A stretch of DNA of 61,692 bases from an uncultured Erysipelotrichaceae bacterium (GTDB taxonomy: Bacteria; Bacillota_I; Bacilli_A; Erysipelotrichales; Erysipelotrichaceae): positions 1 through 61,692 of the forward strand of contig CAMCSA010000008.1 in NCBI GenBank assembly GCA_945877405.1, in the 5' to 3' direction. The translations under genes and the position numbers were made by a program. The notes under the pieces were generated by a model. That model was not told the origin of the DNA. It saw only the letters and a program-made list of their open reading frames with translations, and made no database searches. Shown here piece by piece: positions 21,260 through 61,692 of the stretch (positions are counted from its first letter, which is position 1; every line of letters begins with the position of its first letter).

Positions 21260-21346
21260 ATTTGAGCACCTGGCGAGTTGGTGAAGCGGCTTAACACACC
21301 GCCCTTTCACGGCGGCATTCACGGGTTCGAATCCCGTACTCGTCAC
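21251..21346 (+). repeat. Direct repeat around tRNA-Glu, left copy
   Basis: About 95 bases from the -10 region (GGTATATTATTTGAGCAC) through the tRNA-Glu body are nearly identical to 28448-28543, with one visible difference before the tRNA. The pair frames about 7.2 kb. Confidence 0.85.
21272..21345 (+). tRNA. tRNA-Glu (anticodon TTC)
   Basis: A cloverleaf with acceptor stem GGCGAGT/ACTCGTC, anticodon loop CTTTCAC and T-arm GGGTTCGAATCCC. The CCA end is not encoded in this copy. A second copy with the same body lies at 28469. Confidence 0.95.
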
Positions 21347-28456: not shown

Positions 28457-28543
28457 ATTTGAGCACTTGGCGAGTTGGTGAAGCGGCTTAACACACCGCC
28501 CTTTCACGGCGGCATTCACGGGTTCGAATCCCGTACTCGTCAC
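28448..28543 (+). repeat. Direct repeat around tRNA-Glu, right copy
   Basis: Partner of the repeat at 21251-21346, same orientation. The enclosed segment carries tRNA-Trp, the glucoside genes, the Wzz/BY-kinase/LCP trio, an orphan IS end and a decayed transposase. Confidence 0.85.
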
Positions 28544-45580: not shown

Positions 45581-45670
45581 CTGCTGTCTGTTTCTATGTG
45601 CATTAGCCTGATAATCCAAATTTTTCTGATTGATACAGAATCAATACTGCAGATACTGTATGATACTCAT

Positions 45671-47436: not shown

Positions 47437-48288
47437 ATGAGTGATAAGACAAAGATGACAGGTAAGGTATTATCCGCAATGGTTGGAGTGTTAGTGGCAG
47501 TACTTGCTATTACGGCTTCTACTTTTGCGTGGTATTTCTATAATATTAACGGACATACGACAAAAGTCAGAATGGCTGCAGGGTCTGGCACATCCATCCA
47601 GATTGCCAACGCGATTGATGGGCCATATGCATCCTCTGTACAGATGGATGATTTCAATGATTATCTCAATCCTGTCAGTACGGATCAGATTCGAAATGGA
47701 TTTCAGAAAGTAACCGGGTTTGAAGATGATGGAGAAAACATCTGGGCAAGATATTTCTCTACAGCTGACCATGTGGACTACTGTATCCGTACACTGTATC
47801 TGAAAGCCAATGCATCTGAAGATGTGGATGTATATGTATCTGATATTACGGGTGTCAACAGAGATGACAGTAATCCTTTATCATCTGCCATCCGTGTCGG
47901 ATTTGCTGTATATGATGGGGATGAAATCGGAAATGAATTCATATTCGCCATTGATGATCAGGAAAACCCTCAGGGACACTTCAATACATATACCGATCTG
48001 GATTATGAAAACAATACGGATATCGTTCTGGATTCCACAAAACAGGATGGATCAACCGTATATTTCAAGCCATATGATGCAGGCAGTTATGTCAGCTATG
48101 ATGAGGATCTTGGAACAGTCACACTCAAACAGAATTCTCAGGTCATCTGTACATTAAAAGGGGATGGCACCCCTGTCAGAATTGATGTGTATTTCTGGCT
48201 GGAAGGTTGTGATCCTGACTGTTATGGAAATCTGGCTGGACAGTCGTTAGACAGAATGGCGTTAAGCTTTGCGGGGTACATCAAATGA
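47437..48288 (+). CDS. SipW-signal-peptide surface protein, TasA/camelysin-like (1)
   Basis: A 283-residue exported protein, first of the operon. The signal peptide has the SipW-type form: basic start, hydrophobic core, then AITASTFAWYFYN around the cleavage site (about residues 24-36). The mature part is predicted beta-rich and contains two motifs shared by its paralogues: YLNPVSTDQI near residue 70, and VYFWLEGCDPDC near the C-terminus. The GGAG Shine-Dalgarno is well placed. It overlaps the next gene by four bases. Assembly into fibres is inferred from the TasA/CalY precedent. Confidence 0.82.
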   Translation: MSDKTKMTGKVLSAMVGVLVAVLAITASTFAWYFYNINGHTTKVRMAAGSGTSIQIANAIDGPYASSVQMDDFNDYLNPVSTDQIRNGFQKVTGFEDDGENIWARYFSTADHVDYCIRTLYLKANASEDVDVYVSDITGVNRDDSNPLSSAIRVGFAVYDGDEIGNEFIFAIDDQENPQGHFNTYTDLDYENNTDIVLDSTKQDGSTVYFKPYDAGSYVSYDEDLGTVTLKQNSQVICTLKGDGTPVRIDVYFWLEGCDPDCYGNLAGQSLDRMALSFAGYIK

Positions 48289-49079
48289 ACAGGGACAGAC
48301 TGATGCTTGAGTTTTATCTGACATTGATTGGTATTGTATTTGTTCTGCTTGTTCTGAGTGGCTCTACCTTTGCATGGTTTACCCAGACTGCATTTACCAA
48401 TACGGAATTATACAGTGCCAGTGTAGATGGTGGTACATCATCCATTCTGATCAGCTTACAGCAGGATGGAGAATTTGATAAGGAATGCGAATTGATTCCG
48501 GACAATCATCCGGATGCACTGTATCCGGTCTCTACTGCAGATCTGAATACATTTTATCAGGGCAGTGCAGTCAAAGCAGATGGCATCACATATCGATATA
48601 CAGCTGCAGATACGCAAAACAGAATCATCCAGGGAAGGGTGTATCTGAAAAGCATCAATGGCAGCAATGATGTGTATTTTGATGATGAAAAGTTCAGGGT
48701 TTCCATGGTGGATGGAATGGATGCCGGCTTACGGCTTGGACTGATCATCAATGAACAGACATATATCTTCAATCTGGATACGGGTAATGAAGAAGGCAGA
48801 GTGACAATTGAGAGGGAAGAAGACTCAGTTGTATCCGATATTGATGAGCAGGGGAATCCTGTCTATACAGCTGATCCATGCCTGGATGTGGCACTTTATC
48901 AGGCAGATGGAGAAAATGCAGGTACACATGCTCTTGCCAGGATTGAAGAAGATGAGATTGTACAGGTAGACTACTATGTCTATCTGGAAGGATGCGATCG
49001 TAACTGCATCAATCAGATTCAGAATCAGGATCTGACGATTACATTAGGTTTTCAGGGGGTAGAAGTCAATGCAGAATAA
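48285..49079 (+). CDS. SipW-signal-peptide surface protein, TasA/camelysin-like (2)
   Basis: A 264-residue paralogue. The signal segment LTLIGIVFVLLVLSGSTFAWFTQ has the SipW-type AWF around the cleavage site. The mature domain has LYPVSTADLNTFY and, near the end, YVYLEGCDRNC followed by a beta strand (LTITLGFQGV). Overall identity to its neighbours is low, but the order of motifs is constant, suggesting distinct subunits of one structure rather than recent copies. It overlaps the next gene by 11 bases. Confidence 0.82.
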   Translation: MNRDRLMLEFYLTLIGIVFVLLVLSGSTFAWFTQTAFTNTELYSASVDGGTSSILISLQQDGEFDKECELIPDNHPDALYPVSTADLNTFYQGSAVKADGITYRYTAADTQNRIIQGRVYLKSINGSNDVYFDDEKFRVSMVDGMDAGLRLGLIINEQTYIFNLDTGNEEGRVTIEREEDSVVSDIDEQGNPVYTADPCLDVALYQADGENAGTHALARIEEDEIVQVDYYVYLEGCDRNCINQIQNQDLTITLGFQGVEVNAE

Positions 49080-49902
49080 AAAATATGTTTTATCCCTTGG
49101 TTATATGGCAGTTATGATGGTTGTGATTGTCAGTGTGGCCCTTGTTTCGACCTATGCCTGGTTTACATCCAATCAGAACGTATCTACCACAACAGTCAAC
49201 GCAACAACAGGAACGGATGAAATCCGTCTGCTGTTAGGTGCAACGCAGAATTCTCTGAGTGAAGATCCATGTGTGATCACACAGGATAACATGAATGAGG
49301 GAATTGTGTTATATCCTGTATCTAGTGCGGATCTTGTTACCTTTACCGCAATGGAAGGTACGCAAACCAACACGCGATATAGAAAGATCACAGATCAGGA
49401 TCAGTATTATTACCATGGCGTATTCTATCTGAAGGCAGAAGGCAATGAAGAACGGGAAGTAACCCTGTACCTGGATCAAAGGGATAACAGAATTGTTGAA
49501 GCAGTGGGAGAAACGGAAGTGCTCAATGCTTCCAGATTCGGTTTATTAATCAATGGTCAGGGAAGCATCATCACCATCAGTGATGAAGTCAATGCCGATG
49601 AGGATCGGATTGAAAATACAGTTGTCAATGGGGAAGTGGTAACAGGAGAAAAAGTCATTACACTGGATGAAAACGGGAATCCGGAAGCAGTTGCTTTAAC
49701 ACCATTGTATTTACATGATGCATGTATCCGCAATGATGGGGATACTGCCATCTATCCGGATTACATGTATACCATTACAACAAATACGGTCTATACATGT
49801 GATGTGTATTTCTATCTGGAAGGTACGGATCAGGACTGTTCTGATGCGGTATCCTTTGAGCAGCTGGATCTTTCGATTTCACTGCTGGGGGTAGTCGGAT
49901 GA
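49069..49902 (+). CDS. SipW-signal-peptide surface protein, TasA/camelysin-like (3)
   Basis: A 277-residue paralogue with signal MAVMMVVIVSVALVSTYAWFTSN. The mature part contains LYPVSSADLVTF and the C-terminal VYFYLEGTDQDCSDAV. An acidic insert (residues about 170-215, DEVNADEDRIEN and GEKVITLDENGNPEAV) has no counterpart in paralogue 4. Starts inside gene 2 and overlaps gene 4 by four bases, so all four are translated as a coupled set. Confidence 0.82.
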   Translation: MQNKKYVLSLGYMAVMMVVIVSVALVSTYAWFTSNQNVSTTTVNATTGTDEIRLLLGATQNSLSEDPCVITQDNMNEGIVLYPVSSADLVTFTAMEGTQTNTRYRKITDQDQYYYHGVFYLKAEGNEEREVTLYLDQRDNRIVEAVGETEVLNASRFGLLINGQGSIITISDEVNADEDRIENTVVNGEVVTGEKVITLDENGNPEAVALTPLYLHDACIRNDGDTAIYPDYMYTITTNTVYTCDVYFYLEGTDQDCSDAVSFEQLDLSISLLGVVG

Positions 49903-50666
49903 AAGAAGAATACAGAAATACAGTCAGAAGAACAGTACTTCTGTTGTTGATTGCTTTTGTCGGGATTGTCGGTATTTCCTTTGCATGGTTTACACTGGCA
50001 GATTTCACAAAGGTTTCCACAATGAAACTGGATATTACAAACGGTTCCAACCTGCGGTTTGATGTTGTGGCACATGATGATATCGAAGACTACTATAAGA
50101 CATTGAGTGTGGAAAGAATCCGTGATTATGTGCTTGGAGATCATGGATATGATCTGACAACAACACCATTACAGCCCGTTACTACTGCAGATTGTGTGAC
50201 ATATACATTCGAAGATGGGGAAGTGGCTGGAGTCAATACAGGTGTCTATGTCCAGTTTCCATTACATTTTATGGCAGCTAAGGACATGTATGTACATCTG
50301 ACAACTGCAAATTCACCTGGTAATACCGATGGTACGCAGATCACATCAGATGATGCAAGGCTGACAAATGCATTGCGGATCTGCTTTACGGTAAACGGAA
50401 ACAACTATATTTATTCTCCTGGTATGGGGGAAGGAGCAACGCAGACGGCTATTGGCAAAGTGTTTGGCCTCAATGATGCGGATACCATGGTCTATTCCGA
50501 CAACAACAGTCTGTTTTTCATTCCTGCCTTTACCGATCAGCAGGTCGATGTAAAAATCTGGCTGGAAGGTACGGATGAAGGGTGTGTGGATGATATAAAA
50601 AAGCTGAATTTTACAATGAAATTCCGATTTGCCGGTACAGATGAGGATAATGTATTGGTTGAATAG
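49899..50666 (+). CDS. SipW-signal-peptide surface protein, TasA/camelysin-like (4)
   Basis: A 255-residue paralogue with signal RRTVLLLLIAFVGIVGISFAWFT. The mature part has LQPVTTADCVTYTF and the C-terminal VKIWLEGTDEGCVDDI. A 63-base gap separates it from the first SipW peptidase gene, the longest gap within the operon. Confidence 0.82.
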   Translation: MKEEYRNTVRRTVLLLLIAFVGIVGISFAWFTLADFTKVSTMKLDITNGSNLRFDVVAHDDIEDYYKTLSVERIRDYVLGDHGYDLTTTPLQPVTTADCVTYTFEDGEVAGVNTGVYVQFPLHFMAAKDMYVHLTTANSPGNTDGTQITSDDARLTNALRICFTVNGNNYIYSPGMGEGATQTAIGKVFGLNDADTMVYSDNNSLFFIPAFTDQQVDVKIWLEGTDEGCVDDIKKLNFTMKFRFAGTDEDNVLVE

Positions 50667-50729
50667 CATCTATATGCTAAAATTACACAATAGATAGAAG
50701 TATATTTCGGGAAGAATCAGGGGGAAATC

Positions 50730-51428
50730 ATGGAAAAACTCAAAAAAATCGGACTTACTGTCCTCAGTATATGCTTATGGGGTGTCATTCTGATCGCCGC
50801 TTTATTTGCATTTACAACATTGGCAACAAAGGATACGAATTCAGTTGCTTCAATTGCAGGATTTACACCATTAACAGTTGCAACAGAGTCAATGGAACCA
50901 ACGTTCGGTACCAGTGATCTGATCATCATTCAAAAGTGTGATCCTGCTGATCTGAAGGAAGGGGATATCATCACCTTCCATACCATCATCAACAACGAAT
51001 ACGCTCTGAATACCCATAGAATCGTGGATATCGAAGAAAACAACGGATATCGTTCCTATCGTACAAAGGGTGACAACAACCAGATTGAAGATACACATGT
51101 CATCGCTGATGGCGATATTGTTGGCAAGTATGTACTGAAGCTTGCTGGAGTAGGTGCATTGATGACATTCCTTTCTTCCTCAACAGGATTCCTGGTTGTC
51201 ATCATCCTGCCATTGCTGATCTTCTTTGTCATGCAGGTATATCATCTGATCATGGTTGTCATCAAGCTCAAAAAGGCAACCGCAGAAGAAATGGCAAGTG
51301 AAAATGATGCATCCCTGGATGAAGCATTAAAGGCAAAGCAGGAAGCGGAAGCAGCTTTAGCTGAAGCAAGAAGACTGAAAGAAGAAGCTGAAGCTTTAAA
51401 GAAGGCTGCAGAAGAAAACAAGGAGTGA
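50730..51428 (+). CDS. sipW: SipW-type signal peptidase I (1), with coiled-coil tail
   Basis: A 232-residue signal peptidase of the ER/archaeal type, which uses a serine-histidine pair in place of the serine-lysine pair of ordinary bacterial enzymes. The serine is in VATESMEPTF, the histidine in LNTHRIVDIEE and the acidic residue in TKGDNNQIED. One N-terminal and two adjacent C-terminal membrane helices flank the catalytic domain. The last 50 residues form an Ala/Glu/Lys coiled coil (KAKQEAEAALAEARRLKEEAEA), unusual for the family. GGGGGA precedes the ATG. Its likely substrates are the SipW-signal proteins around it. Confidence 0.9.
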   Translation: MEKLKKIGLTVLSICLWGVILIAALFAFTTLATKDTNSVASIAGFTPLTVATESMEPTFGTSDLIIIQKCDPADLKEGDIITFHTIINNEYALNTHRIVDIEENNGYRSYRTKGDNNQIEDTHVIADGDIVGKYVLKLAGVGALMTFLSSSTGFLVVIILPLLIFFVMQVYHLIMVVIKLKKATAEEMASENDASLDEALKAKQEAEAALAEARRLKEEAEALKKAAEENKE

Positions 51429-51432
51429 AACT

Positions 51433-53136
51433 GTGAGTGAATTTCTGAATCTGGCATTTGAGCTGATATCACAGATTATCTATTATCTGAGTGAATGGGT
51501 AGTAGGTTTTTTCACCGGATTTCTGAGAATCTTTGTGACGGGTGTTCCGGTATATATTACGATCTTTGCATCCTACTTTCCTTCTTTAAATCTGTTTTCC
51601 AAAGTACTTGCAGTACTGCTGGCGTTAATTCTGATTGCCATTCCGGTATTACTGCTTGTTATCATCATTCGAAAACTCATTCTGTATATCCGCCTCAAGG
51701 ATACAAAGGAAGATAATGTCGAGCTGTATAAGGAAATCGGAAGACTGAACAGACAGGTATTGAACCTGATGGATGAAAAGAACAAGATTCTTGCCTTAAA
51801 GGTCAATAATACAGGTCTGAACCGTGTATCCTATGTAGGTTCCAGTGGACTCATGGATGATGTACCTGCTTCTGCGATTGCTGGTGGGAATGTAGCTGGC
51901 GCAGCAGAAGGAGGCAGTGTTGAAGGTGGTGTCATTGCAGGAAATGCAAATGTCGGCTTCAACATGAATGAAGATTCCATGGCAAATCTGGCTGGTGGAA
52001 TGGCTGCAGCACAGGTAGCTGCAAAAAGACAGAGCGAGGAAGAAGAAAAGAAGCAGGCAGTCAGATTTCCGAAACTCGATCTTGTTGATCGTAAATACAT
52101 GCATTACGTTGAACCGAAGTTTGACGATGAAATCACACTGGAACAGTTCTGCGAAGGTTATCGTGCCTTTGCCTGTTCGCAGCTGCATTTATATTACACA
52201 ATGGAAATCGTACGTCGATTTGTTGCTGGTATGGCATCCAGCCATATTATGATTCTGGAAGGTATTTCCGGTACAGGTAAAACATCTTTACCATATTCCT
52301 TCTCAAGATATCTCGATAACCCGGCTACCATTGTTTCCGTTCAGCCAAACTTCCGTGATCGTACGGAGCTGCTTGGTTATTTCAACGAATTCTCAAAGCG
52401 TTTTAATGAAACCGAATTCTTAAGAGCTTTATATGAAGCTAACTATCGGGAAGAGCCATGTATCATCGTATTAGACGAAATGAACCTGGCCCGTATTGAA
52501 TACTACTTTGCGGAAATGCTTTCCATTCTGGAAATGCCATCTGTAGATGAGTGGATTATTGACCTTGTTCCAACAGCATGGGAAGGGGATCCGATCAAGC
52601 TTGTCGATGGTAAGATCCATATCAATCCGAATATCTGGTTTGTCGGTACAGCCAACAACGATGACTCCACATTTACGATTACCGATAAGGTATACGATAG
52701 AGCCATGCCGATTGAGCTGAACGAAAGAGCTGCTGCATTTGAAATTGCAGATCAGCCTGCTGTTCATGTCACTGCAGCCCATCTGCATCAGATGTTCAAG
52801 GAAGCACAGGAAAAGTATCCATTGACCGATGCCATGCAGGAAAAGCTGAACAAGCTTGACTCCTACCTGCAGACAAGATTCAAGCTTGCGATCGGTAACC
52901 GTATCATCAAGCAGATGAATGACTTCGTACCTGTTTATGTAGCGACAGGTGGTACGGAACTGGATGCGATTGACTATATCATTTCACGTAAGGTACTCAA
53001 GAAGTTTGAATCTTTGAACCTTTCCTTTGTACGTGATGAAATCAAGGGACTGATTGCCTATATCGAAAAGATTTTCGGTAAGAGCGGTATGAAGGATTCC
53101 AAAGATTATCTGACAAGAATTCAGAATCTGTATTAA
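51433..53136 (+). CDS. Membrane-anchored McrB-like AAA+ ATPase
   Basis: A 567-residue protein. The N-terminus has two to three membrane helices (about residues 12-85), then a short coiled coil (VELYKEIGRLNRQVLNLMDEKNKILAL) and a Gly/Ala-rich linker. The C-terminal AAA+ domain is of the McrB/MoxR kind: Walker A GISGTGKTSL (277-286), Walker B IIVLDEMNLARIEYYFAEM (Asp348-Glu349), sensor 1 GTANNDDSTFTI and arginine finger YDRAMPIEL. GTG start, with AAGGAG overlapping the sipW stop. No restriction endonuclease partner is present; the next gene encodes a DUF2357 protein. Its role in a surface-fibre operon is unexplained. Confidence 0.85.
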   Translation: MSEFLNLAFELISQIIYYLSEWVVGFFTGFLRIFVTGVPVYITIFASYFPSLNLFSKVLAVLLALILIAIPVLLLVIIIRKLILYIRLKDTKEDNVELYKEIGRLNRQVLNLMDEKNKILALKVNNTGLNRVSYVGSSGLMDDVPASAIAGGNVAGAAEGGSVEGGVIAGNANVGFNMNEDSMANLAGGMAAAQVAAKRQSEEEEKKQAVRFPKLDLVDRKYMHYVEPKFDDEITLEQFCEGYRAFACSQLHLYYTMEIVRRFVAGMASSHIMILEGISGTGKTSLPYSFSRYLDNPATIVSVQPNFRDRTELLGYFNEFSKRFNETEFLRALYEANYREEPCIIVLDEMNLARIEYYFAEMLSILEMPSVDEWIIDLVPTAWEGDPIKLVDGKIHINPNIWFVGTANNDDSTFTITDKVYDRAMPIELNERAAAFEIADQPAVHVTAAHLHQMFKEAQEKYPLTDAMQEKLNKLDSYLQTRFKLAIGNRIIKQMNDFVPVYVATGGTELDAIDYIISRKVLKKFESLNLSFVRDEIKGLIAYIEKIFGKSGMKDSKDYLTRIQNLY

Positions 53137-53142
53137 TACTAT

Positions 53143-55158
53143 ATGGCCAATACACTTAATGATCTATATCTGAAATATACCAACAAGGTTGTTTCAAGCC
53201 TGGAAAAAGACAGATACTTTCAGTATATGTTTGAAATGCTGTCGGCGGGGGACAACCGTTTTCAGCATTCTTCTCAGGTCATGCATAAGCAGATCGATGA
53301 AAAATGGCTGAGTATGATTGAGGATTCACTCGATTCCATCAATAACATCATTGAAAAACCAAGACGATTCATCACAACAAAAGAAGAAGTCGTTCCGGTA
53401 TCGTTAGCCAAAAAGATCACAGCAGACTCTGTACGTCATCTCTCACAGAATACGCAGTTTATTGCGGCTAGTGAAGATGGAGATGTACATCCGACTAGAA
53501 TTCTCAATGTGACTGTTGATGAAACCTATGATCTTTATGAAAACAGGTTCATCTATCATCTGATTCAGCGTCTTGTCACATTCATTGATAAGCGTACGGA
53601 TGTACTGTTCTGGTCAACTGGTGATGAAAAGCGCAATGTCATGACCATGGAATCCAAGATTGAGGATGGTTATGAAGAAATCGAGTATAAACTCGAAATG
53701 AAGATCAAAAACAGACAGTCATTTGCGGAAAATGAATCCGATAATATGGCTCTGTTTATGAGAATTGACCGCGTCAGAAGAAGAGTCATGGCTTTAAAGA
53801 CTTCATCTTTCTGTTCCATCATGGCAGGATGTGCAAAGGTCAGAAGCCCGATTCAGCGTACAAACCTCATTATGAAAGATCCGGACTACCGTAATTGTTA
53901 TAAGTTATGGCAGTTTATTGAATCCTATGATGAAGTCGGTTATTCCATTGATATCCGGAATACGAACATTGAATATGATGAAGATTATCTGACAAACATG
54001 TACATCAATCTCATTACAAACTATGTCGTATTCAAATCACTTCTGGAGATGGATAAACGGGATGTGCTGAGTGAAACATTAAAGAAACACAAAGTACTCA
54101 AACCGAAGTTTGTCAAAGTCATCAATGAAGAAGAAGTCAAAGCAGAAGACTTTGATCTTGAGGATGTGGAAGTCCGTCAGGTCATTGTAGAAGAAGTCAC
54201 AAAGGCCCAACTGGAATTACAGAAGAAGTTTGATGAGCTGAATGCAAAATTACAGGATGTAGCTGCACAGCGTGATGAAATGGGATCCCGGCTTGAAACA
54301 CTTGGGTATCAGTTGGAAACACAGCTGGAAGATAGCGAAAGAAAACTGAAAGAGCAGAAAGCAAAGCTTGTGGAAGCTCATAAGCTTAAGGAAGAAAAGC
54401 TGAATGTGCTAAGGCAGGAAGCACTCGATCAGGTAAATGATCTGATGGCTAAGCTTACACAGGCACAGGAAAGTGCTGCAGCAGTTCATCAGGAAAACGA
54501 AAATCTGGCAAGAATCAATGCAACACTGACTGCTGAAAAGCAGGCTGATACAGATAGAAGGCAGAAACTGGAAGAAAAGCTTGCGGAATTGCAGGAAACT
54601 TCACAGCAATTACAGCAGAACAATGCAGCTCTTTCCACTTTGGCAAAACAAAGTCAGGAAGAAATGCAGCAGGCACTTGCTGATAAGGATGCAGCTGTCA
54701 AGCAATGCCAGGAAGCAGTCGATCAGGCAAAAACAGATCGGATGTTACGTGAGGCTGCAGAGTTGAACTTACGTGCACAGATCACAGCAAGGCAGGACGA
54801 AGAAACAAAGAATCTCAAAGCAGAACAGCTCAATGCACAGCTGCAGGAAACCATCAATGCCAAAGATGATGAGATGACTGCATTACGCAGGAAGATCGAA
54901 CAGCTGACAAGTGAAAAATATGCATTGAGTGAAAAACTGGATCGGGAAAAGAAACAGCGAAAAGAAAGTGATGCGAAGGTTCGAGAACTCAGTGCCAGTG
55001 TGAAAAAGAGTGATGCTTTGAATACAAAGCTCAATGATGAACTTGAAGTGGAAAGAAAGAAGAGACTGAAAGCGGAAAAGAAGGCAGAAGGTACTGTTCT
55101 TTCCAGATACATCATCGCAAAACTCAATGGATCAGCCAATGAAGAAAACAATTCTTAA
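53143..55158 (+). CDS. DUF2357-like protein with long coiled coil
   Basis: A 671-residue cytoplasmic protein. The first 320 residues resemble DUF2357 proteins, which act beside McrB-type ATPases: TRILNVTVDETYDLYENRFIYHLIQRL is the telling stretch, and KDPDYRNCYKLWQFIESYD-like sequence follows. Residues about 350-655 form one long Gln/Glu/Lys coiled coil. The C-terminal nuclease domain found in many DUF2357 or McrC-like proteins is absent. There is little Shine-Dalgarno before the ATG at 53143, so translation may be coupled to the ATPase six bases upstream. Confidence 0.75.
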   Translation: MANTLNDLYLKYTNKVVSSLEKDRYFQYMFEMLSAGDNRFQHSSQVMHKQIDEKWLSMIEDSLDSINNIIEKPRRFITTKEEVVPVSLAKKITADSVRHLSQNTQFIAASEDGDVHPTRILNVTVDETYDLYENRFIYHLIQRLVTFIDKRTDVLFWSTGDEKRNVMTMESKIEDGYEEIEYKLEMKIKNRQSFAENESDNMALFMRIDRVRRRVMALKTSSFCSIMAGCAKVRSPIQRTNLIMKDPDYRNCYKLWQFIESYDEVGYSIDIRNTNIEYDEDYLTNMYINLITNYVVFKSLLEMDKRDVLSETLKKHKVLKPKFVKVINEEEVKAEDFDLEDVEVRQVIVEEVTKAQLELQKKFDELNAKLQDVAAQRDEMGSRLETLGYQLETQLEDSERKLKEQKAKLVEAHKLKEEKLNVLRQEALDQVNDLMAKLTQAQESAAAVHQENENLARINATLTAEKQADTDRRQKLEEKLAELQETSQQLQQNNAALSTLAKQSQEEMQQALADKDAAVKQCQEAVDQAKTDRMLREAAELNLRAQITARQDEETKNLKAEQLNAQLQETINAKDDEMTALRRKIEQLTSEKYALSEKLDREKKQRKESDAKVRELSASVKKSDALNTKLNDELEVERKKRLKAEKKAEGTVLSRYIIAKLNGSANEENNS

Positions 55159-55699
55159 GATCATCAATGCCATCTCTGTGGTAATTATCTGTGTGGCATT
55201 ATATGCCATGATCAAGGTCGTATTTACTCCAGGTGGTATGGCACCGGAATTTCTCGGGTATTCTGTATTCAGAATCTCATCCGGATCCATGGAGCCGACC
55301 ATTAAAGTGGATTCCCTTGTTGTTGTAAAACAGATTGAACCACAGGATGTACAGGTTGATGATGTGATTACATTCTATTCCGATGATCCTGTATTACAGG
55401 GATTTCCAAATACCCATCGTGTCAAGGAAATCATTGATGAGGATGGGCATCTGTATTATGTGACACAGGGGGATGCCAATCCGATTGTGGATGCTTACAA
55501 GGCAGATTCCAGTAAGTTAATCGGTGTAGTGATCTATCAATCGCCACTCCTTGGTAAGGCAATGCGATTATTATCCAATCCACTGATCTTTATTCCTGTG
55601 ATTGCCTTACCGTTAGTGTATATTCTGATTTCATCCATAGTCGATACGATCAGAATCGCAGGAAAGATATCCGAAGAAGAGGACAACAGTGATGTTTGA
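55139..55699 (+). CDS. sipW: SipW-type signal peptidase I (2)
   Basis: A 186-residue ER-type signal peptidase: catalytic serine in SSGSMEPTIKVDS, histidine in PNTHRVKEIIDEDG and acidic residue in TQGDANPIVD. One N-terminal helix and two C-terminal helices, with no coiled-coil tail, unlike peptidase 1. The ATG at 55139 lies inside the coiled-coil gene by 20 bases; an ATG four codons earlier is possible. Two SipW enzymes in one operon suggest different substrates, which is inference. Confidence 0.88.
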   Translation: MKKTILKIINAISVVIICVALYAMIKVVFTPGGMAPEFLGYSVFRISSGSMEPTIKVDSLVVVKQIEPQDVQVDDVITFYSDDPVLQGFPNTHRVKEIIDEDGHLYYVTQGDANPIVDAYKADSSKLIGVVIYQSPLLGKAMRLLSNPLIFIPVIALPLVYILISSIVDTIRIAGKISEEEDNSDV

Positions 55700-57617
55700 T
55701 TTCAGATTTGATATTGCTGCACTGGTGATCAGTCTCATCAGTTATGCAATCATTACAATGAAGAGAAACTATCTGACACGTGAATCACGTGTCTTTGTTG
55801 CCTGCATTGTACTCAACATGATTTCAGCCGTATGCAATATCATATCGACAATCGCTGTCGCCTATAACTCAGCTGCACTTGTATCCTTTGCTTTTTTGGC
55901 CAAGTTTATTCATTTTATCCTGATCTTTCTGATGACGGCAGGCTTCTATACAGCCTCCTTGATCCGGGTGAAGGAAAAAGGGTTAGGAAAGATCGATCAG
56001 ATCATACTGATCGCATATCTTGGGATCAATGTCGTATTGTTATGTACTTCATTTTTTACAAAGTTCTATTTCTACTTTGACGGGGAGTATCGGTTACGGA
56101 CAAGTTTCCTGTACTATCTTGCTGTGTTACTGCATATAGTCATGATGGTATATACCGGTATTCTGATCGCAAAAAAGGAAAAGGAAGAAGATAGTGCAAC
56201 AGCAGTATATGTTGTTGTTGCAATGGCAATCTATGTCACTTTGACTCTGGTCAATGCCTTTGTCAAAGGAAGCAATGTATATCACTTTGCAGTAGCAGTG
56301 CTGTTTCTGTGTGTGCATGTCATCCTCAACAATCCGGAAGATTATGTGGCTGCCTATTACAGCTGTTTCAATGATGTGGCATATAAGGATTCTCTGATTT
56401 ATCATCAGAACCGGAATAAGCAGTTACATTCCATCGGCATCAGCTGTGGAGAAATGGATTTTCTCAAATCCACATATTCAGACCTTGAAATCATGACTGC
56501 TTTAAAGCCGTTTACCGAATTTGCAAGGGCAAGATTTGGTGCCTATAACTTCTATGTCATCGGCACAAGCCAGTTTGTTGTACAGGTCAAAGGAAACAAT
56601 TCCCTGATTGAATCCACAATGTCTGAAATCAGGAATTACTTCATGGAACCCATCAGCATTGGTGGTGTGGAATTTGTCATTTCACCACTATTTGCGGTTG
56701 TGGAAGATCGGGAAAAGTTTGACTCAGTGGATTCCTACTTTGAAGTATTGAGTTACTGTATGAACCATACGGAACTGTTTGCCGCAAAGCAGGTATTACG
56801 TGTTACAAGTCAGCATATCACATTTGTCAACCAGGAGCAGGAAATGGTACTGGCAGTCACAAGAGCAATCAAAAATGATGGTGTGCTTATATATTACCAG
56901 CCGATTTATTCCGCTGAGACTGGTGGTTATCCGACCAGTGAAGCACTGGTACGAATCAAAGATGAAAAGCTTGGATTCATTTCTCCTGCTGACTTCATTC
57001 CGATTCTGGAAAGAAACGGAATGATTGTTGAATTAGGAGAACTGATTCTGAAACGTGTTTGTGAAGACTATCAGAAATATGAATTTCCTAAGCTTGGGAT
57101 TGAACGGGTGGAAGTCAATCTTTCCGGAAGGCAGTTAGTCGTTCCGGGGATTTATAAAAAGCTGTTAGGTATTATCAAAGAAAACCAGGTGCCAAAGGAT
57201 GCAATTCTGTTTGAAATTACTGAATCCTATACAAAGGAGTCTGCCCAGGCTTATATCCTGGAAAACATCAAAGGAATAACAGATAACGGCATCAAGCTTG
57301 CCTTAGATGACTTTGGTACAGGTTATTCCACAATGATCAATCTGATCCGCTTACCATTTGAAATCATCAAGATTGATAAATCACTATTGGATAATGCGAT
57401 GGCAGATCTGAAATCCATGGTATTATTGAAAAATAATGTAAACATGCTCAAGGAACTCAAGAAAAAGATTGTTGTTGAAGGTGTTGAAACAAGTGAAGAA
57501 GCAAAGATGCTGAAGAACTTAGGTGTTCACTACTTCCAGGGTTATCTTTACAGTAAGCCTGTCAGTGTAGAAGAATATGTCAGTTTCCTCAAACCAAAGG
57601 AAAGGAGTGCGAAGTAA
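55692..57617 (+). CDS. Membrane EAL-domain c-di-GMP phosphodiesterase, degenerate GGDEF
   Basis: A 641-residue protein. About seven membrane helices (residues 5-215) precede a degenerate GGDEF domain, where the signature reads GTSQF (FYVIGTSQFVVQVKG), so cyclase activity is not expected. The EAL domain (about 390-635) looks active: E417 of SEALVRI, Asn in VNLSGRQL, Glu in FEITES, DDFGTGYST, IKIDKSLLD, VVEGVETSEEA and Gln in YFQGYLYSKP are all present. It would hydrolyse cyclic-di-GMP. I prefer the ATG at 55692 (AGAGGA upstream) over GTG at 55689. It shares one base with the PilZ gene. Confidence 0.93.
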   Translation: MFDFRFDIAALVISLISYAIITMKRNYLTRESRVFVACIVLNMISAVCNIISTIAVAYNSAALVSFAFLAKFIHFILIFLMTAGFYTASLIRVKEKGLGKIDQIILIAYLGINVVLLCTSFFTKFYFYFDGEYRLRTSFLYYLAVLLHIVMMVYTGILIAKKEKEEDSATAVYVVVAMAIYVTLTLVNAFVKGSNVYHFAVAVLFLCVHVILNNPEDYVAAYYSCFNDVAYKDSLIYHQNRNKQLHSIGISCGEMDFLKSTYSDLEIMTALKPFTEFARARFGAYNFYVIGTSQFVVQVKGNNSLIESTMSEIRNYFMEPISIGGVEFVISPLFAVVEDREKFDSVDSYFEVLSYCMNHTELFAAKQVLRVTSQHITFVNQEQEMVLAVTRAIKNDGVLIYYQPIYSAETGGYPTSEALVRIKDEKLGFISPADFIPILERNGMIVELGELILKRVCEDYQKYEFPKLGIERVEVNLSGRQLVVPGIYKKLLGIIKENQVPKDAILFEITESYTKESAQAYILENIKGITDNGIKLALDDFGTGYSTMINLIRLPFEIIKIDKSLLDNAMADLKSMVLLKNNVNMLKELKKKIVVEGVETSEEAKMLKNLGVHYFQGYLYSKPVSVEEYVSFLKPKERSAK

Positions 57618-58291
57618 TGGCAGAACTGAAAATCAAATCCGGTACAAAAATGAAAATGGCCTTTAACAGTGATACACCGGAATTCAATTTTGTAACTACA
57701 TTCAATAAGGCTCTGGATGAATCTGCCTTCCTTGTATCCATTCCTTTAAAAGATGGCAAGGCGTTAACCGTTGCGGATGATCAGAAGCTGTTATTCAAAT
57801 ATGGGGCTGATCAGGACGAGGCAGTCATTGCAGGGTATGTCGATGATATTGTTAAACAGGGTATCAAACGATACTGGAAAATTCGCAGAGTTACGGAAAT
57901 GCGTAACTTTGTACAACGTAGAGATGAACGTATTGATCTAACCTTACCAATCAAATACCTTGATCCGATCTGGAAACCAAACAGTGATGGTGTGATTGAA
58001 AAAGAAGAAGGCACAACACTGAATATTTCTGCCGGTGGTCTTGCGATCAACATCAACTATCACTTTGATGTTGGAGAAGCCATTGAAATTGATCTTCCAA
58101 ATGTTGGCTCAGCAATTGATGGCATTGGCCCTAAGGCAATTACATCCATTATCTGCTGGACAAGAGAAGCTCCGAAGGGTTCGCTTTACAGGCATGTGGC
58201 AGGTGTGCAGTTCCGCTTTGGTGATGATGGAAGCCAAAGAGAAACAATGCAGAACTATGTTGCCTTTGCGAAAAAGAAATACAAGTTATGA
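57617..58291 (+). CDS. PilZ domain c-di-GMP receptor
   Basis: A 224-residue protein of the YcgR-like layout: an N-terminal beta-barrel flagellar-brake-like domain (1-95) and a PilZ domain (97-220). The ligand motif RxxxR appears in QRRDERIDLTLP (R101, R102, R105). The second motif reads NISAGG (136-141), with Asn for the usual Asp of DxSxxG. It should bind cyclic-di-GMP. Its place between the EAL gene and a membrane protein with a long cytosolic tail suggests that it passes the signal to the export machine. It overlaps both neighbours. Confidence 0.88.
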   Translation: MAELKIKSGTKMKMAFNSDTPEFNFVTTFNKALDESAFLVSIPLKDGKALTVADDQKLLFKYGADQDEAVIAGYVDDIVKQGIKRYWKIRRVTEMRNFVQRRDERIDLTLPIKYLDPIWKPNSDGVIEKEEGTTLNISAGGLAININYHFDVGEAIEIDLPNVGSAIDGIGPKAITSIICWTREAPKGSLYRHVAGVQFRFGDDGSQRETMQNYVAFAKKKYKL

Positions 58292-59442
58292 AAAAACTGT
58301 TTACGAAAAAAGAAAAACAGCAGGTACAGGATATTCCGGATCATCTGGAACAGGAAGTCAGTGAGAAACCTGAAAAGAAAAAGAAGTTCAGTTTCAAGCT
58401 GAAAGAAAAAGAGAAAAAAGAAAAGATCCGGTTTAAAAAGGCAATTGTACGATCAGAAGAGATCTCAAAGGCAGGCGCTAAAGAAGATGAACTGGATGAT
58501 AAGATTGTCTCCTCCTATGTCCCATACCGTAGAGCAAAGAGACTTGGTCGATCTTTATTACGACTGGATAAACTTTCCATCTGGTTTTTATCTTTGACAT
58601 TAATTGTAACCATCATCTTCATCTTCTCCTTCATGCAGGAAAAGATGGGCAACTTTACAATCAACCTGAACCGACTGGAACTGTATCGTAAGGGCATTAC
58701 CATTTCTGCTGACTCGGTATTTACAAATCCGACCGCAAGATTGACTGCGAATGCGATCTCAGATGCCACAAACATCTCAGCAAATGACCTGCCAGAGAAT
58801 ATCAATGATATTGATGGTGACCATAATGGGAAAAACTATGTGGCATATACATACTATATCCGTAATGCAGGAAAAGAAGATGTGCAGTATTCTGCAGTGG
58901 TAAACCTGGATTCCTATTCCAAGAATGCAGATGAAGCAGCAAGAGTCATTGTATACCACAATGATGAAAAGACGGTGTATGCCAAAAAGGCTGCCGATGG
59001 TAATCCGGAACCTGGTACAACACCATTTGTATCAGCAAACATCGTATGTGAATATTACAATGATGAATTCCTTGTAGGTAACGTCGATAAATATACGATT
59101 GTCATCTTCTTAGAAGGGGATGACCCTGAGTGTGTGGATGCGATTATTGGTGGATCACTGGAATTCTCCATGAATATCTCAGCAGATGATGAATCTGAAA
59201 CATCGTTATTTGTTAAGTGGGTACAGGATATCATTGATACAATTACTGATAATGATTCCATTGGTACAGCAGGTACGGATGCACCTGACTTCTATATCCA
59301 GAACAAGGATATCACCTATGAAAACAGAAGAAACGGTCCAAATAACATCTATGAGGATAACAGAACTCCTACAGATAACTCCTCACAGATCAAGGAAAGC
59401 TTCGGTCAGTTAGGGGATAAAGTAAAGGAAGACGTAGAATAA
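58288..59442 (+). CDS. Type II membrane protein with TasA-like outer domain
   Basis: A 384-residue protein. Residues 1-about 98 are a very basic cytosolic tail (EKKEKIRFKKAIVR and many KKKK-like runs). One membrane helix (about 98-118, LSIWFLSLTLIVTIIFIFSF) follows. The outer domain carries the family motif YTIVIFLEGDDPECVDAI but no SipW cleavage site, so it should stay anchored. It could nucleate or hold the fibre formed by the cleaved paralogues and receive the PilZ signal through its tail; both are inference. Last gene of the operon. Confidence 0.8.
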   Translation: MKKLFTKKEKQQVQDIPDHLEQEVSEKPEKKKKFSFKLKEKEKKEKIRFKKAIVRSEEISKAGAKEDELDDKIVSSYVPYRRAKRLGRSLLRLDKLSIWFLSLTLIVTIIFIFSFMQEKMGNFTINLNRLELYRKGITISADSVFTNPTARLTANAISDATNISANDLPENINDIDGDHNGKNYVAYTYYIRNAGKEDVQYSAVVNLDSYSKNADEAARVIVYHNDEKTVYAKKAADGNPEPGTTPFVSANIVCEYYNDEFLVGNVDKYTIVIFLEGDDPECVDAIIGGSLEFSMNISADDESETSLFVKWVQDIIDTITDNDSIGTAGTDAPDFYIQNKDITYENRRNGPNNIYEDNRTPTDNSSQIKESFGQLGDKVKEDVE

Positions 59443-59754
59443 ATACACATATGTAACCATATAGATGTGTCTATGGAAGTTACCTATGAAAAAATGCACA
59501 GGAAATACTTAAAATACTAGCTAAACCTATTGTAAAAACAGGTAAATTCATATAAGATTTCTTTGTAGAAAAGCAAAACTAGCGCAAGCTAGTGACGCAA
59601 AGCTAGAGGGGCTCTACGAGTCAGCCAGTTGCTAAAGGTTCTATAGTTGCCTTTGGTATTTATTTTATTGGCAGGCTTGGATAGAAAGATTGGATCAGAT
59701 CTTTCTACCTGTGAGTCGTTGATCATTTCTTAATATGACTAAGGGGGAAAAACA
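59443..59754 (+). promoter_or_regulatory. Control region before the camelysin-like pair
   Basis: This 312-base gap holds a candidate promoter (TTGTAA 59530-59535, TAAGAT 59553-59558, 17-base spacing), the cyclic-di-GMP riboswitch at 59572-59633, a hairpin AAAGG/CCTTT (59635-59655) followed by a T-rich run, and a 9-bp perfect stem TAGAAAGAT/ATCTTTCTA (59682-59707). It ends in the Shine-Dalgarno AAGGGGG. No obvious terminator for the preceding operon is seen. Confidence 0.6.
59572..59633 (+). promoter_or_regulatory. Cyclic-di-GMP class I riboswitch (GEMM-I)
   Basis: The sequence matches the GEMM-I consensus closely. P1 is AGCAA/TTGCT. P2 is ACTAGC-GCAA-GCTAGT with a GNRA tetraloop. GTGACGCAAAGCTAGAGGG is the conserved linker and 5' side of P3, and GTCAGCCAGTTGCT supplies the 3' side. 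The conserved GACGCAAAGC and CAGCCAG blocks are present. It lies 122 bases before a SipW-signal surface protein gene. Whether binding switches expression on or off cannot be told from the platform that follows. Confidence 0.93.
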
Positions 59755-60552
59755 ATGTCAGTAAAAACATTAAGAAAACAATTGTTTGCGGCAATCGCCA
59801 TGGTACTGGTTGCCGCTATTGCACTGGGCAGCTCCACCTACGCATGGTTTGCAAACAACAACACTGTTAAAGCAGACGGGATGAAAATCAATGCGAAAGC
59901 AGAAGGCACCATGCTTGTAATTTCCAACACTGTAGAAGGATTAAACGATAAAAAAACATCTTACACTTTTGATCCGGTTGTAAAAGGAGAAAACTTATAT
60001 CCTGTTCATCCTATTTATACAAGTGTATCAGGAAATGATGTTACTGCTTGGAATCATGCGTATTCCGACAAATTTGATACAGCAATAAGCAACAGTACAG
60101 AAACCGCCGTAAGCACAGATGATTTGAATGCGGGAAAATATTATGTAACTACAGACCTGTATATTGGTTTGGATAATACTCACAATGCAGCTTCTGTTGG
60201 AGCCATTACTGTTACAGGCGTTACTTTAACAAGTTCAGGAAATACCTTGTTAAATTCTGCTCGTGTGCTGATGGTTGATAAAGACGGCAAAGTTATTGGC
60301 TGTTTTGGCAACGGAACTTGTTTAAGTGAAAAAGGAACTGATTATGCAGTGGATACTCCAGCAACAGCCGATACCATGACTGAGCTTTCACCAGCCAATA
60401 CAGGAACTGTTATTGGCGGGTTAACTGCAGGTCAAAATGTAAAAGTAACATTATTTATTTATTTTGATGGTCGTGATAGTTCTTGCACAAGCCAGAATTT
60501 CAAAGCTGATGAAGTAACTTGCTCTTTAGAATTTACTGCTGCAGATGCTTAA
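59755..60552 (+). CDS. Camelysin/TasA-like SipW-signal surface protein (5)
   Basis: A 265-residue exported protein under the cyclic-di-GMP riboswitch. Its signal MSVKTLRKQLFAAIAMVLVA to SSTYAWFANNN is the clearest SipW-type signal in the locus. The mature domain has YPVHPIYTS and the C-terminal IYFDGRDSSC. It is rich in Thr, Ser, Asn and Gly, without the acidic inserts of the operon paralogues. A strong riboswitch leader and AAGGGGG Shine-Dalgarno suggest it is the major, abundant subunit; that is inference. The following hairpin at 60609 separates it from the next gene. Confidence 0.87.
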   Translation: MSVKTLRKQLFAAIAMVLVAAIALGSSTYAWFANNNTVKADGMKINAKAEGTMLVISNTVEGLNDKKTSYTFDPVVKGENLYPVHPIYTSVSGNDVTAWNHAYSDKFDTAISNSTETAVSTDDLNAGKYYVTTDLYIGLDNTHNAASVGAITVTGVTLTSSGNTLLNSARVLMVDKDGKVIGCFGNGTCLSEKGTDYAVDTPATADTMTELSPANTGTVIGGLTAGQNVKVTLFIYFDGRDSSCTSQNFKADEVTCSLEFTAADA

Positions 60553-60728: not shown

Positions 60729-61523
60729 ATGATTATTAAAACTTTAAGAAAACAATTATATCTGGCAATTATGTCATTAATGATTGTTGTTTTTTGTATT
60801 ACAACAGCAACCTATGCCTGGTTTTCTATGAATAACTCAGTTTCCGCTGATGGAATAGAGATATCTGCTAAAACAGAAGGAATTAATTTTGAAATCACAT
60901 CTAAAGTTGACTCGTTAGGTAATCCAGTCTTTACGGTTGGACAGATTATAGATTCTACAACCATTTCCGCCATAAATCTGTTACCTGTTCATCCTGTAAT
61001 TACCGACAATAGTTTAACAGGTTGGCAACATGCTGTGTCTGATACATATGATGATGCCAAGATTGATGCCTCTAGAAATGATTTATCACTTGTAGCGAAT
61101 CAAATCAAAGATTCCAACAATATATATCAGTATGAAATTTTATATGATGCAAGTGGCAACTATGTTCTTCATGCAACTTATTATCTAAGACTAAATCCAG
61201 ATACTTCAGCTGATGGAAATAGCCTTAATAACATCGTTGCGCAAAATGTAGTATTGACTGGAATAGATTCCTCAAAGGATTATTCAAAATGTACAAGATT
61301 AGTTGTTGAAGGTCCTGATGGAACATATGAAATTGGTCCCGAAGGTTCCACAGGCGAGGGAAGTATCAAAACATCCGGTACATTAATAACAAAGATTGAA
61401 AAAGGTAACGATTATAGTATTGATGTATATGCATTCTTCGAAGGAATGGATGAAAACTGTAAGAGTAGTTCATTTATCCCTGTGGATTTAGGTATAAGCG
61501 TAGATTTTGCAGAGGGTTCATAA
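60729..61523 (+). CDS. Camelysin/TasA-like SipW-signal surface protein (6)
   Basis: A 264-residue close relative of protein 5: signal IIKTLRKQLYLAIMSLMIVV to TTATYAWFSMNN, then NLLPVHPVITDNS and the C-terminal VYAFFEGMDENCKSS. Base composition is visibly more AT-rich than in the main operon, which may mean different origin or expression. AAGGAGG precedes the ATG. A candidate -10 (GATATAATC) near 60670 suggests its own promoter. No riboswitch consensus is seen ahead of it. Confidence 0.87.
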   Translation: MIIKTLRKQLYLAIMSLMIVVFCITTATYAWFSMNNSVSADGIEISAKTEGINFEITSKVDSLGNPVFTVGQIIDSTTISAINLLPVHPVITDNSLTGWQHAVSDTYDDAKIDASRNDLSLVANQIKDSNNIYQYEILYDASGNYVLHATYYLRLNPDTSADGNSLNNIVAQNVVLTGIDSSKDYSKCTRLVVEGPDGTYEIGPEGSTGEGSIKTSGTLITKIEKGNDYSIDVYAFFEGMDENCKSSSFIPVDLGISVDFAEGS

Positions 61524-61607
61524 AATATAACTCCATCGTTTTAGATGTGAATTAAAATAGATGTTATAAAGTTCGAAGAAAAACCACCACGTTTTAGATA
61601 TCGAAAT

Positions 61608-61673
61608 AAAGTGGTACCCAGGAGATGGACAGAACTCTGACAGTTCTGAGCCCTCAAATGGGGCCACTTTTTC
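61608..61673 (+). terminator. Probable terminator at window end
   Basis: AAAGTGG (61608-61614) pairs with CCACTTT (61664-61670), enclosing a second perfect hairpin CAGAACT/AGTTCTG, and TT CTGTCC follows. GGACAG/CTGTCC offers an alternative pairing. It probably ends the transcript of the gene at 60729. Confidence 0.6.
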
Positions 61674-61692
61674 TGTCCTTGTAACTGATGAT

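What the first reader, a model, noticed from the sequence alone, without database searches (positions are those of the whole stretch)
59572..59633. GEMM-I riboswitch directly controls a camelysin-like gene
Seen: all conserved GEMM-I blocks with a GNRA loop in P2, then hairpins and a SipW-signal gene. Known: GEMM-I binds cyclic-di-GMP and often controls adhesion or motility genes in Bacillota. The nearby EAL and PilZ genes make a closed loop: the operon can lower cyclic-di-GMP, and the riboswitch reads it.
Basis: partly seen in the sequence, partly recalled or inferred. Interest (0 to 1): 0.8.

Follow-up and report, generated by a model that had tools for sequence, protein, structure and literature searches.

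The report
c-di-GMP riboswitch gating fibre-subunit gene
A real RNA sensor for the signal molecule cyclic-di-GMP sits directly in front of two genes for likely surface-fibre subunits, the same pairing recurs in eight other gut and rumen bacteria, and it therefore looks like a genuine way of tying fibre production to cyclic-di-GMP levels.

Summary
Confirmed. Rfam RF01051 matches window 59562-59636 (+) at 55.7 bits (cut-off 35). The next gene, 119 nt on, has a SipW-type signal (SSTYAWF), and a paralogue follows. A weak intrinsic terminator (59630-59669) uses the aptamer's 3' strand, so bound ligand should switch the genes ON; the same overlap recurs in most related leaders.

Upstream lies a SipW pilus cluster with an McrB-like NxD ATPase and a DUF2357 partner (the CoCoPALM type), plus EAL and PilZ genes. 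In 50 genomes carrying its ATPase, 11 of 87 GEMM-I aptamers, in eight genomes, directly precede the homologous gene; two keep the order PilZ-gene-riboswitch-subunit. Clusters with a c-di-GMP phosphodiesterase beside PilZ had SipW-linked GEMM-I in 7 of 7 genomes, those without in 0 of 15 (post hoc, not corrected for phylogeny).

Corrections: the EAL gene is upstream of the switch, so a strictly closed loop is not shown. Ligand position 20 is A, so the ligand is less certain, though c-di-GMP stays likelier than cGAMP. 'Camelysin' is not supported by Pfam; a TasA/FimA-like fold is compatible.

By-product: an Rfam-unclassified covarying 90-nt RNA in the same gene's leader in about 20 relatives. 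No binding or expression was tested.

The parts
59562..59636 (+). c-di-GMP-I (GEMM-I) riboswitch aptamer; Vc2-equivalent positions: A20 = 59572, A47 = 59599, C92 = 59632
   Evidence: RF01051 55.7 bits; own model R1 71.0 bits (but this sequence is in the model's training set)
59563..59570 (+). 5' strand of P1, pairs with 59639-59646; forms only while the terminator is unmade
   Evidence: stepwise folding, transcript ending at 59650
59630..59669 (+). intrinsic terminator: stem 59630-59639 / 59649-59658, 9-nt loop, tail UUUAUUUUAUU; its 5' arm contains C92 and the P1 3' strand of the aptamer
   Evidence: -10.3 kcal/mol hairpin overlapping the aptamer reached in 4 of 300 shuffles of the downstream sequence
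59682..59707 (+). second hairpin, 9 perfect pairs, no U-tract; role unknown
   Evidence: -12.9 kcal/mol
59740..59757 (+). ribosome-binding site (AAGGGGG) and ATG of the first subunit gene
   Evidence: sequence
59755..60552 (+). Cam1: 265-aa SipW-signal (SSTYAWF) putative fibre subunit, directly behind the riboswitch
60729..61523 (+). Cam2: paralogue of Cam1 (about 30% identity), TATYAWF signal
58288..59442 (+). TMsip: 384-aa membrane-anchored protein, last gene before the riboswitch, conserved neighbour
57617..58291 (+). PilZ-domain protein with intact RxxxR and NxSxxG motifs
   Evidence: Pfam PF07238 E 3e-10; motifs
55689..57617 (+). membrane protein with EAL phosphodiesterase domain, catalytic motifs present
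   Evidence: Pfam PF00563 E 2e-61; motifs
55127..55699 (+). SipW-like signal peptidase 2
   Evidence: TIGR02228
53143..55158 (+). McrC-N-like DUF2357 protein
   Evidence: PF09823 E 2e-12
51433..53136 (+). McrB-like AAA_5 ATPase, Walker A GISGTGKT, NxD signature TANNDD
50730..51428 (+). SipW-like signal peptidase 1
   Evidence: TIGR02228 E 7e-30
47437..50666 (+). four SipW-signal secreted proteins (SipPil1-4), conserved start of the cluster

Best explanation
A genuine c-di-GMP-I riboswitch acts as a transcriptional ON-switch for two SipW-processed fibre-subunit genes at the end of a CoCoPALM-type pilus cluster. While the leader is being transcribed the aptamer folds first; bound c-di-GMP holds its 3' strand (C92 and P1), so the terminator at 59630-59669 cannot form and the subunit genes are read. 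Without ligand the terminator takes that strand and transcription stops. The EAL protein encoded in the same cluster can lower the signal and the PilZ protein can sense it at the protein level, so c-di-GMP would act on both assembly and subunit supply. Shown: aptamer, terminator overlap, gene order, recurrence. Inferred: ligand, direction of switching, fibre function.
For: Aptamer: RF01051 55.7 bits. Overlap: stepwise folding gives the aptamer with P1 up to 59650 and the terminator from 59656 on; overlap reached in 4 of 300 shuffles; hairpins that begin in the aptamer's UGCCG/UUGCC end and run into a U-tract are also seen in L170, L175, L179, L208, L226 and L109. Recurrence: GEMM-I directly before the homologous gene in G316, G318, G324, G325, G333, G340, G347 and G358; 11 of 87 aptamers; order PilZ-TMsip-GEMM-I-Cam1 in G318 and G358. 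Coupling to c-di-GMP turnover: EAL or HD-GYP-like phosphodiesterase beside PilZ in 7 of 7 genomes with SipW-linked GEMM-I, none of 15 without. Canonical GGDEF enzymes in the genome.
Against: Position 20 is A, known to shift ligand preference towards cGAMP in Vc2 mutants and Geobacter riboswitches (PMC7288161, PMC9262584). P1 is short and interrupted. The terminator is weak (-10.9 kcal/mol with G-U pairs) and was missed by the stock scan because its loop is 9 nt; in L184 and L198 the overlapping hairpin has no U-tract, so not all relatives need work the same way. No convincing promoter was found just before the aptamer. Many relatives with the same cluster have no GEMM-I there. The phosphodiesterase correlation was noticed after looking and is not corrected for phylogeny.
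Confidence: 0.7

Rival explanations
1. The riboswitch senses 3',3'-cGAMP, or cGAMP and c-di-GMP alike, because position 20 is A (GEMM-Ib-like selectivity).
For: A20 at 59572 with C92 kept. Position 20 is the ligand-selectivity base and G20A lets GEMM-I bind cGAMP (PMC7288161, PMC6274999, PMC9262584). A20 is commoner among SipW-linked aptamers (10 of 23) than among the rest (25 of 139; Fisher p 0.012).
Against: All GGDEF domains read in the genome have the canonical Asp, none the Ser that marks Hypr cGAMP synthases (reading PMC6456294); no SMODS-type CD-NTase. G and A both occur before the same gene and even within one tandem pair (L185, L199), so A20 alone does not mark another pathway. EAL and PilZ in the cluster are c-di-GMP proteins.
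Confidence: 0.1
2. The switch works the other way (OFF) or at translation, through the hairpin 59682-59707 and ribosome-binding-site access, rather than through the 59630-59669 terminator.
For: The terminator is weak; the stronger 59682-59707 hairpin has no U-tract; two relatives (L184, L198) have an overlapping hairpin without U-tract; known GEMM-I switches of both signs exist (PMC9262584).
Against: No stable pairing of the AAGGGGG site is seen in the leader fold; the aptamer-overlapping terminator with U-tract recurs in most related leaders.
Confidence: 0.15
3. The aptamer is a decaying or constitutive relic: A20 and a short P1 leave it unable to bind usefully.
For: 55.7 bits is among the lower scores in the family; position 93 is U and P1 is interrupted.
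Against: All the other core blocks, the GNRA loop and C92 are intact; A20 is a common natural state (35 of 162 aptamers); the overlapping terminator is kept.
Confidence: 0.07

Closest known systems
c-di-GMP-I riboswitches of Bacillota with transcription terminators (Cd1 of Clostridioides difficile; PMC9262584)
   Same: same aptamer family, transcriptional control by a terminator next to the aptamer
   Different: Cd1 is an OFF-switch with an antiterminator; here aptamer and terminator share a strand, as in the pilM switch of Geobacter, which is an ON-switch. The target gene class (SipW-signal fibre subunit) is different.
GEMM-Ib (3',3'-cGAMP) riboswitches of Geobacter (pilM, pgcA; PMC6456294, PMC9262584)
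   Same: A at the Vc2 position-20 equivalent; ON logic with mutually exclusive aptamer and terminator
   Different: no Hypr GGDEF recognised here; the cluster carries c-di-GMP-specific protein domains
[quoted passage not shown] PMC11090510)
   Same: McrB-like NxD ATPase, DUF2357 partner, signal peptidases
   Different: the paper does not mention c-di-GMP, EAL or riboswitches in the passages found; here EAL, PilZ and a riboswitch are part of or next to the cluster
SipW-TasA/CalY and SipW-BsaA fibre operons (Bacillus; Clostridium perfringens, PMC7395162)
   Same: SipW-type peptidase and secreted subunits with a TYAWF/TFAWF-like signal; predicted TasA-like beta-sandwich
   Different: C. perfringens sipW-bsaA is controlled by a two-component system, and no GEMM-I control of such a subunit was found in the papers searched

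Membership tests
c-di-GMP-I riboswitch (RF01051) | covariance-model score above the curated cut-off | tested here: met
   55.7 bits against 35, full length
c-di-GMP-I riboswitch (RF01051) | GNRA tetraloop on P2, conserved GACGCAAAGC / CAGCC core, A47 and C92 equivalents | tested here: met
   GCAA loop 59584-59587; A59599; C59632
c-di-GMP-I riboswitch (RF01051) | G at position 20 (commonest ligand-contact state; not required by the model, so not a bar to membership) | tested here: not met
   A at 59572; A20 also in 35 of 162 related aptamers
c-di-GMP-I riboswitch (RF01051) | binds c-di-GMP and changes gene expression | not testable with these tools
   needs in-line probing and transcription assays
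c-di-GMP-I-UAU subfamily (RF03168) | score above its cut-off | tested here: not met
   54.9 against 65.9 bits
GEMM-Ib / cGAMP riboswitch | A at position 20 | tested here: met
   A59572, spacing 27 to A59599 as in 4YAZ (PMC7288161)
GEMM-Ib / cGAMP riboswitch | a cGAMP synthase (Hypr GGDEF or CD-NTase) in the genome | tested here: not met
   the GGDEF domains that could be read all have canonical Asp (not every one of the 12 hits could be read); no SMODS hit; the assembly is 95.6% complete
CoCoPALM | McrB-like ATPase with NxD instead of NxxD | tested here: met
   GTANNDD after Walker A/B, criterion from PMC11090510
CoCoPALM | McrC-type DUF2357 partner and signal-peptidase genes | tested here: met
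   PF09823 E 2e-12; two TIGR02228 peptidases
CoCoPALM | FtsB-like transmembrane/coiled-coil domain on the ATPase; coiled coils on both partners | tested here: inconclusive
   N-terminal hydrophobic segments and a long charged helical tail are visible in the sequence, not computed; only weak SMC/MukB-like coiled-coil matches for the DUF2357 protein
camelysin (Peptidase_M73, PF12389) | Pfam match | tested here: not met
   no hit for Cam1 or Cam2; 3 of 28 homologues at E 0.08
SipW-dependent fibre subunit (TasA/CalY type) | SipW-type signal with AWF motif and SipW peptidase genes nearby | tested here: met
   SSTYAWF, TATYAWF; two SipW-like peptidases in the cluster
SipW-dependent fibre subunit (TasA/CalY type) | TasA-like fold | tested here: inconclusive
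   AlphaFold2 pLDDT 70, pTM 0.70; TasA fibre 8aur Z 6.6 ties with FimA Z 6.7, below the level that stands out; no Foldseek match under E 1e-3

The most novel reading that the evidence does not exclude
C-di-GMP controls a CoCoPALM (McrBC-linked) pilus system at three layers - phosphodiesterase (EAL or, in relatives, HD-GYP-like), PilZ protein and GEMM-I riboswitch - and the leader of the fibre-subunit gene is a plug-in site for RNA sensors: GEMM-I alone (window, G318, G358), a second, Rfam-unclassified covarying 90-nt RNA alone (many Lachnospiraceae), or both in tandem (G316, G340, G347).
Probability: 0.4. Interest if true: 0.75.

Novelty: new member of a known kind. Interest (0 to 1): 0.55.

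Why it matters
The riboswitch class is known, but its target is not: it would put a widespread, uncharacterised pilus/fibre system of gut and rumen Clostridia, whose ATPase pair is related to the McrBC restriction family, under direct c-di-GMP control. That gives a testable signal and a reporter handle for CoCoPALM systems, and the co-occurrence with a phosphodiesterase and PilZ suggests which second messenger to vary.

Tried and rejected
- Promoter scan: no convincing sigma-70 site right before the aptamer, fewer sites than in shuffles. - Family-wide search: no other family genome has GEMM-I before a SipW-signal gene among the loci inspected, so the context is not a family-wide trait; in 315 order genomes only G182, G204 and G297 have clear orthologues of the ATPase. 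- c-di-GMP-II (RF01786) as a replacement in relatives: only G358 has it. - PDB sequence search with the Cam1 profile: nothing; Foldseek: nothing under 1e-3. - Rfam on the conserved leader element of relatives: no family at gathering, only a chance-level match at E 1.4. - T-box-like look of 61565-61692: no Rfam match even at E 1. - Literature: no paper in the library links GEMM-I to SipW/TasA/camelysin genes or to CoCoPALM; subscription papers, including the original cGAMP riboswitch paper, are not held.

Full report
OBSERVATION. cmscan finds RF01051 (c-di-GMP-I, GEMM-I) at window 59562-59636, + strand, 55.7 bits against a cut-off of 35. It is the only GEMM-I above cut-off in the 2.1-Mb assembly; a second, weak one (29.8 bits) is on contig C29. 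P2 carries a GCAA (GNRA) tetraloop. In the clan-wide look at the leader alone the subfamily RF03168 (c-di-GMP-I-UAU) scores 54.9 bits, below its own cut-off. The window is the whole contig C8 and ends 169 nt after the second subunit gene.

LIGAND SITE. The base just before the G21-C46 pair is Vc2 position 20 (Vc2 numbering partly from my own knowledge); here it is A (59572). The spacing to the A47 equivalent (59599) is 27, the same as Vc2 G20-A47 and as A14-A41 in the cGAMP riboswitch 4YAZ (contacts listed in PMC7288161). Position 20 is described as a selectivity factor rather than a hard filter (PMC9262584), and a G20A mutant of the c-di-GMP-I riboswitch binds cGAMP (PMC7288161). Among 162 related aptamers 35 have A20. 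Both G and A occur before the same gene type and even within one tandem pair (L185, L199), so A20 alone does not define another pathway, though it is commoner in SipW-linked aptamers (10 of 23 against 25 of 139, p 0.012). The genome's GGDEF domains that could be read have the canonical Asp, not the Ser of Hypr enzymes (criterion from PMC6456294), and there is no SMODS-type nucleotidyltransferase. C-di-GMP is therefore the likelier ligand; this is inference.

EXPRESSION PLATFORM. Stepwise folding: up to 59650 the best fold is the aptamer with P1 (59563-59570 with 59639-59646); from 59656 the hairpin 59630-59639/59649-59658 followed by UUUAUUUUAUU takes over. With transcripts ending at 59668 the terminator state is -29.1 and the aptamer state about -24.4 kcal/mol, a gap that ligand binding could plausibly close (inference). 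A hairpin at least this stable that starts in the aptamer and runs into a U-rich tail arose in 4 of 300 dinucleotide shuffles of the downstream sequence. The same arrangement, with the aptamer's UGCCG or UUGCC end as 5' arm of a strong terminator, is seen in L170 (twice), L175, L179, L208, L226 and L109; L184 and L198 have the overlapping hairpin without a U-tract. Ligand should thus prevent termination: an ON-switch. A further hairpin, 59682-59707, has no U-tract and no assigned role.

GENE CONTEXT. The cluster upstream (47437-59442) holds four SipW-signal proteins, two SipW-like peptidases, an AAA_5 ATPase, a DUF2357 protein, an EAL protein, a PilZ protein and a membrane protein. The ATPase has the NxD signature (TANNDD). 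Bell et al. (PMC11090510) named NxD McrB/McrC pairs with signal peptidases and coiled coils CoCoPALM and deferred them; a text search found no mention of cyclic di-GMP there. One genome scan gave 80 loci with the same ATPase, mostly Lachnospiraceae, Oscillospiraceae and Ruminococcus, with conserved order. In the window's own family the system is rare, and a TnpB-like gene sits at 45596-46981, so it may have been acquired; this was not tested further.

RECURRENCE. RF01051 occurs in 33 of 50 genomes that carry the ATPase. Of 87 distinct aptamers, 11, in eight genomes (G316, G318, G324, G325, G333, G340, G347, G358), have as next gene a homologue of Cam1 with an N-terminus like KALRKQLxAAIAMxLVAAIALGSSTYAWF. 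Assuming about 15 such genes among 2300 per genome, chance gives P about 1e-11 (the 15/2300 is my rough assumption, and tandem aptamers are not independent). In G318 (contig of L087) and G358 (contig of L127) the order PilZ - TMsip - GEMM-I - Cam1 is the same as in the window. Further GEMM-I precede other SipW-signal genes (L127, L185, L186, L199, L205, L206, L207).

PHOSPHODIESTERASE. The gene before PilZ is EAL in the window, HD_5 (HD-GYP-like) in G322, G324, G339, G347 and G358 and, by its sequence, in G318. All seven genomes have SipW-linked GEMM-I. In 15 clusters where PilZ has no such neighbour (L089, L095, L096, L097, L099, L100, L101, L107, L113, L114, L115, L118, L124, L126, L128; for L100, L113, L118 and L124 judged from the sequence only) none of the genome's GEMM-I found was SipW-linked. 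Fisher p 6e-6, but the split was seen before it was tested, follows phylogeny in part, and some genomes are incomplete.

THE SUBUNIT. Cam1 has no Pfam or NCBIfam match. AlphaFold2 on 28 homologues (pLDDT 70, pTM 0.70) gives a beta-sandwich with an N-terminal signal helix. The second-look aligner lists FimA (Z 6.7), the TasA fibre (8aur, Z 6.6) and the archaeal 0406 filament and bundling pili (Z 5.4-5.5); all below the level that stands out. 'TasA-like fibre subunit' is a reasonable working name; 'camelysin' is not established.

BY-PRODUCT. The leaders of the homologous subunit gene in many Lachnospiraceae hold another RNA of about 90 nt (consensus ...CCUCACCGG...ACUCUU..AACCGGGCCCGGUGGGAGUAUGAUCUG..). 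On 12 sequences 93.6% of cells pair and 9 pairs change on both sides, far above both controls. Rfam has no family for it at gathering score. A model finds it in 20 of 51 genomes, one copy each, and in all 19 with enough sequence it lies 19-188 nt before the subunit gene, including genomes not used to build the model. It is absent from the window's genome. In G316, G340 and G347 it follows a GEMM-I in the same leader. Its inner strand CUCACCGG can pair with CCGGUGGGAG or, in many copies, with a nearer partner, which would suit a switch; that is inference.

VERDICT.

Noticed in passing
L089:16337-16427, L097:18564-18653, L115:16068-16156, L109:265-354, L179:1647-1735, L208:2280-2369 (-) and about 14 more: Rfam-unclassified 90-nt structured RNA with strong covariation, one copy per genome, always directly before the camelysin-like subunit gene; in three genomes in tandem behind GEMM-I. 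Not in the window.
   Followed up: partly
L259:9561-9644, L259:17021-17104, L260:2684-2758, L260:10109-10185: One 45-kb contig (G358:C106) carries two c-di-GMP-II and two c-di-GMP-I riboswitches in front of successive genes of one SipW/CoCoPALM region.
   Followed up: partly
L093, L108, L116, L257, L260, L285 against window 55689-57617: The c-di-GMP phosphodiesterase next to PilZ is EAL in some clusters and HD-GYP-like in others: non-homologous replacement at the same position.
   Followed up: partly
L011, L012, L015, L017, L019 (G256-G260): Arrays of three to four tandem GEMM-I aptamers about 125-135 nt apart before one secreted-protein gene.
   Followed up: no
L004:5953-6032 (G000:C29:14952-15031, -): Weak second GEMM-I (29.8 bits) before a lipoprotein/solute-binding-like gene in the window's own genome; a GGDEF gene lies just upstream.
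   Followed up: no
L086, L089, L095, L101, L115, L125, leaders of the subunit gene: Short conserved hairpin of the type CGGUGCCACAACCACCG followed by UUUGUAUAA in the leader.
   Followed up: no
L177, L180, L209: GEMM-I before genes whose N-terminus resembles polyphosphate-polymerase (VTC) domains; family not tested.
   Followed up: no
window 45596-46981: Divergent TnpB-like RNA-guided nuclease gene (NF040570 E 3e-18, below cut-off; no Pfam hit) just upstream of the SipW cluster.
   Followed up: partly
window 21272-21345 and 28469-28542: Two identical tRNA genes 7 kb apart.
   Followed up: no
window 35657-41491: 1944-aa surface protein with a dozen SpaA prealbumin-like repeats.
   Followed up: no
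window 61565-61692: Hairpins with a GUGGUACC segment and a terminator-like end at the contig edge, T-box-like by eye, but no Rfam match.
   Followed up: partly
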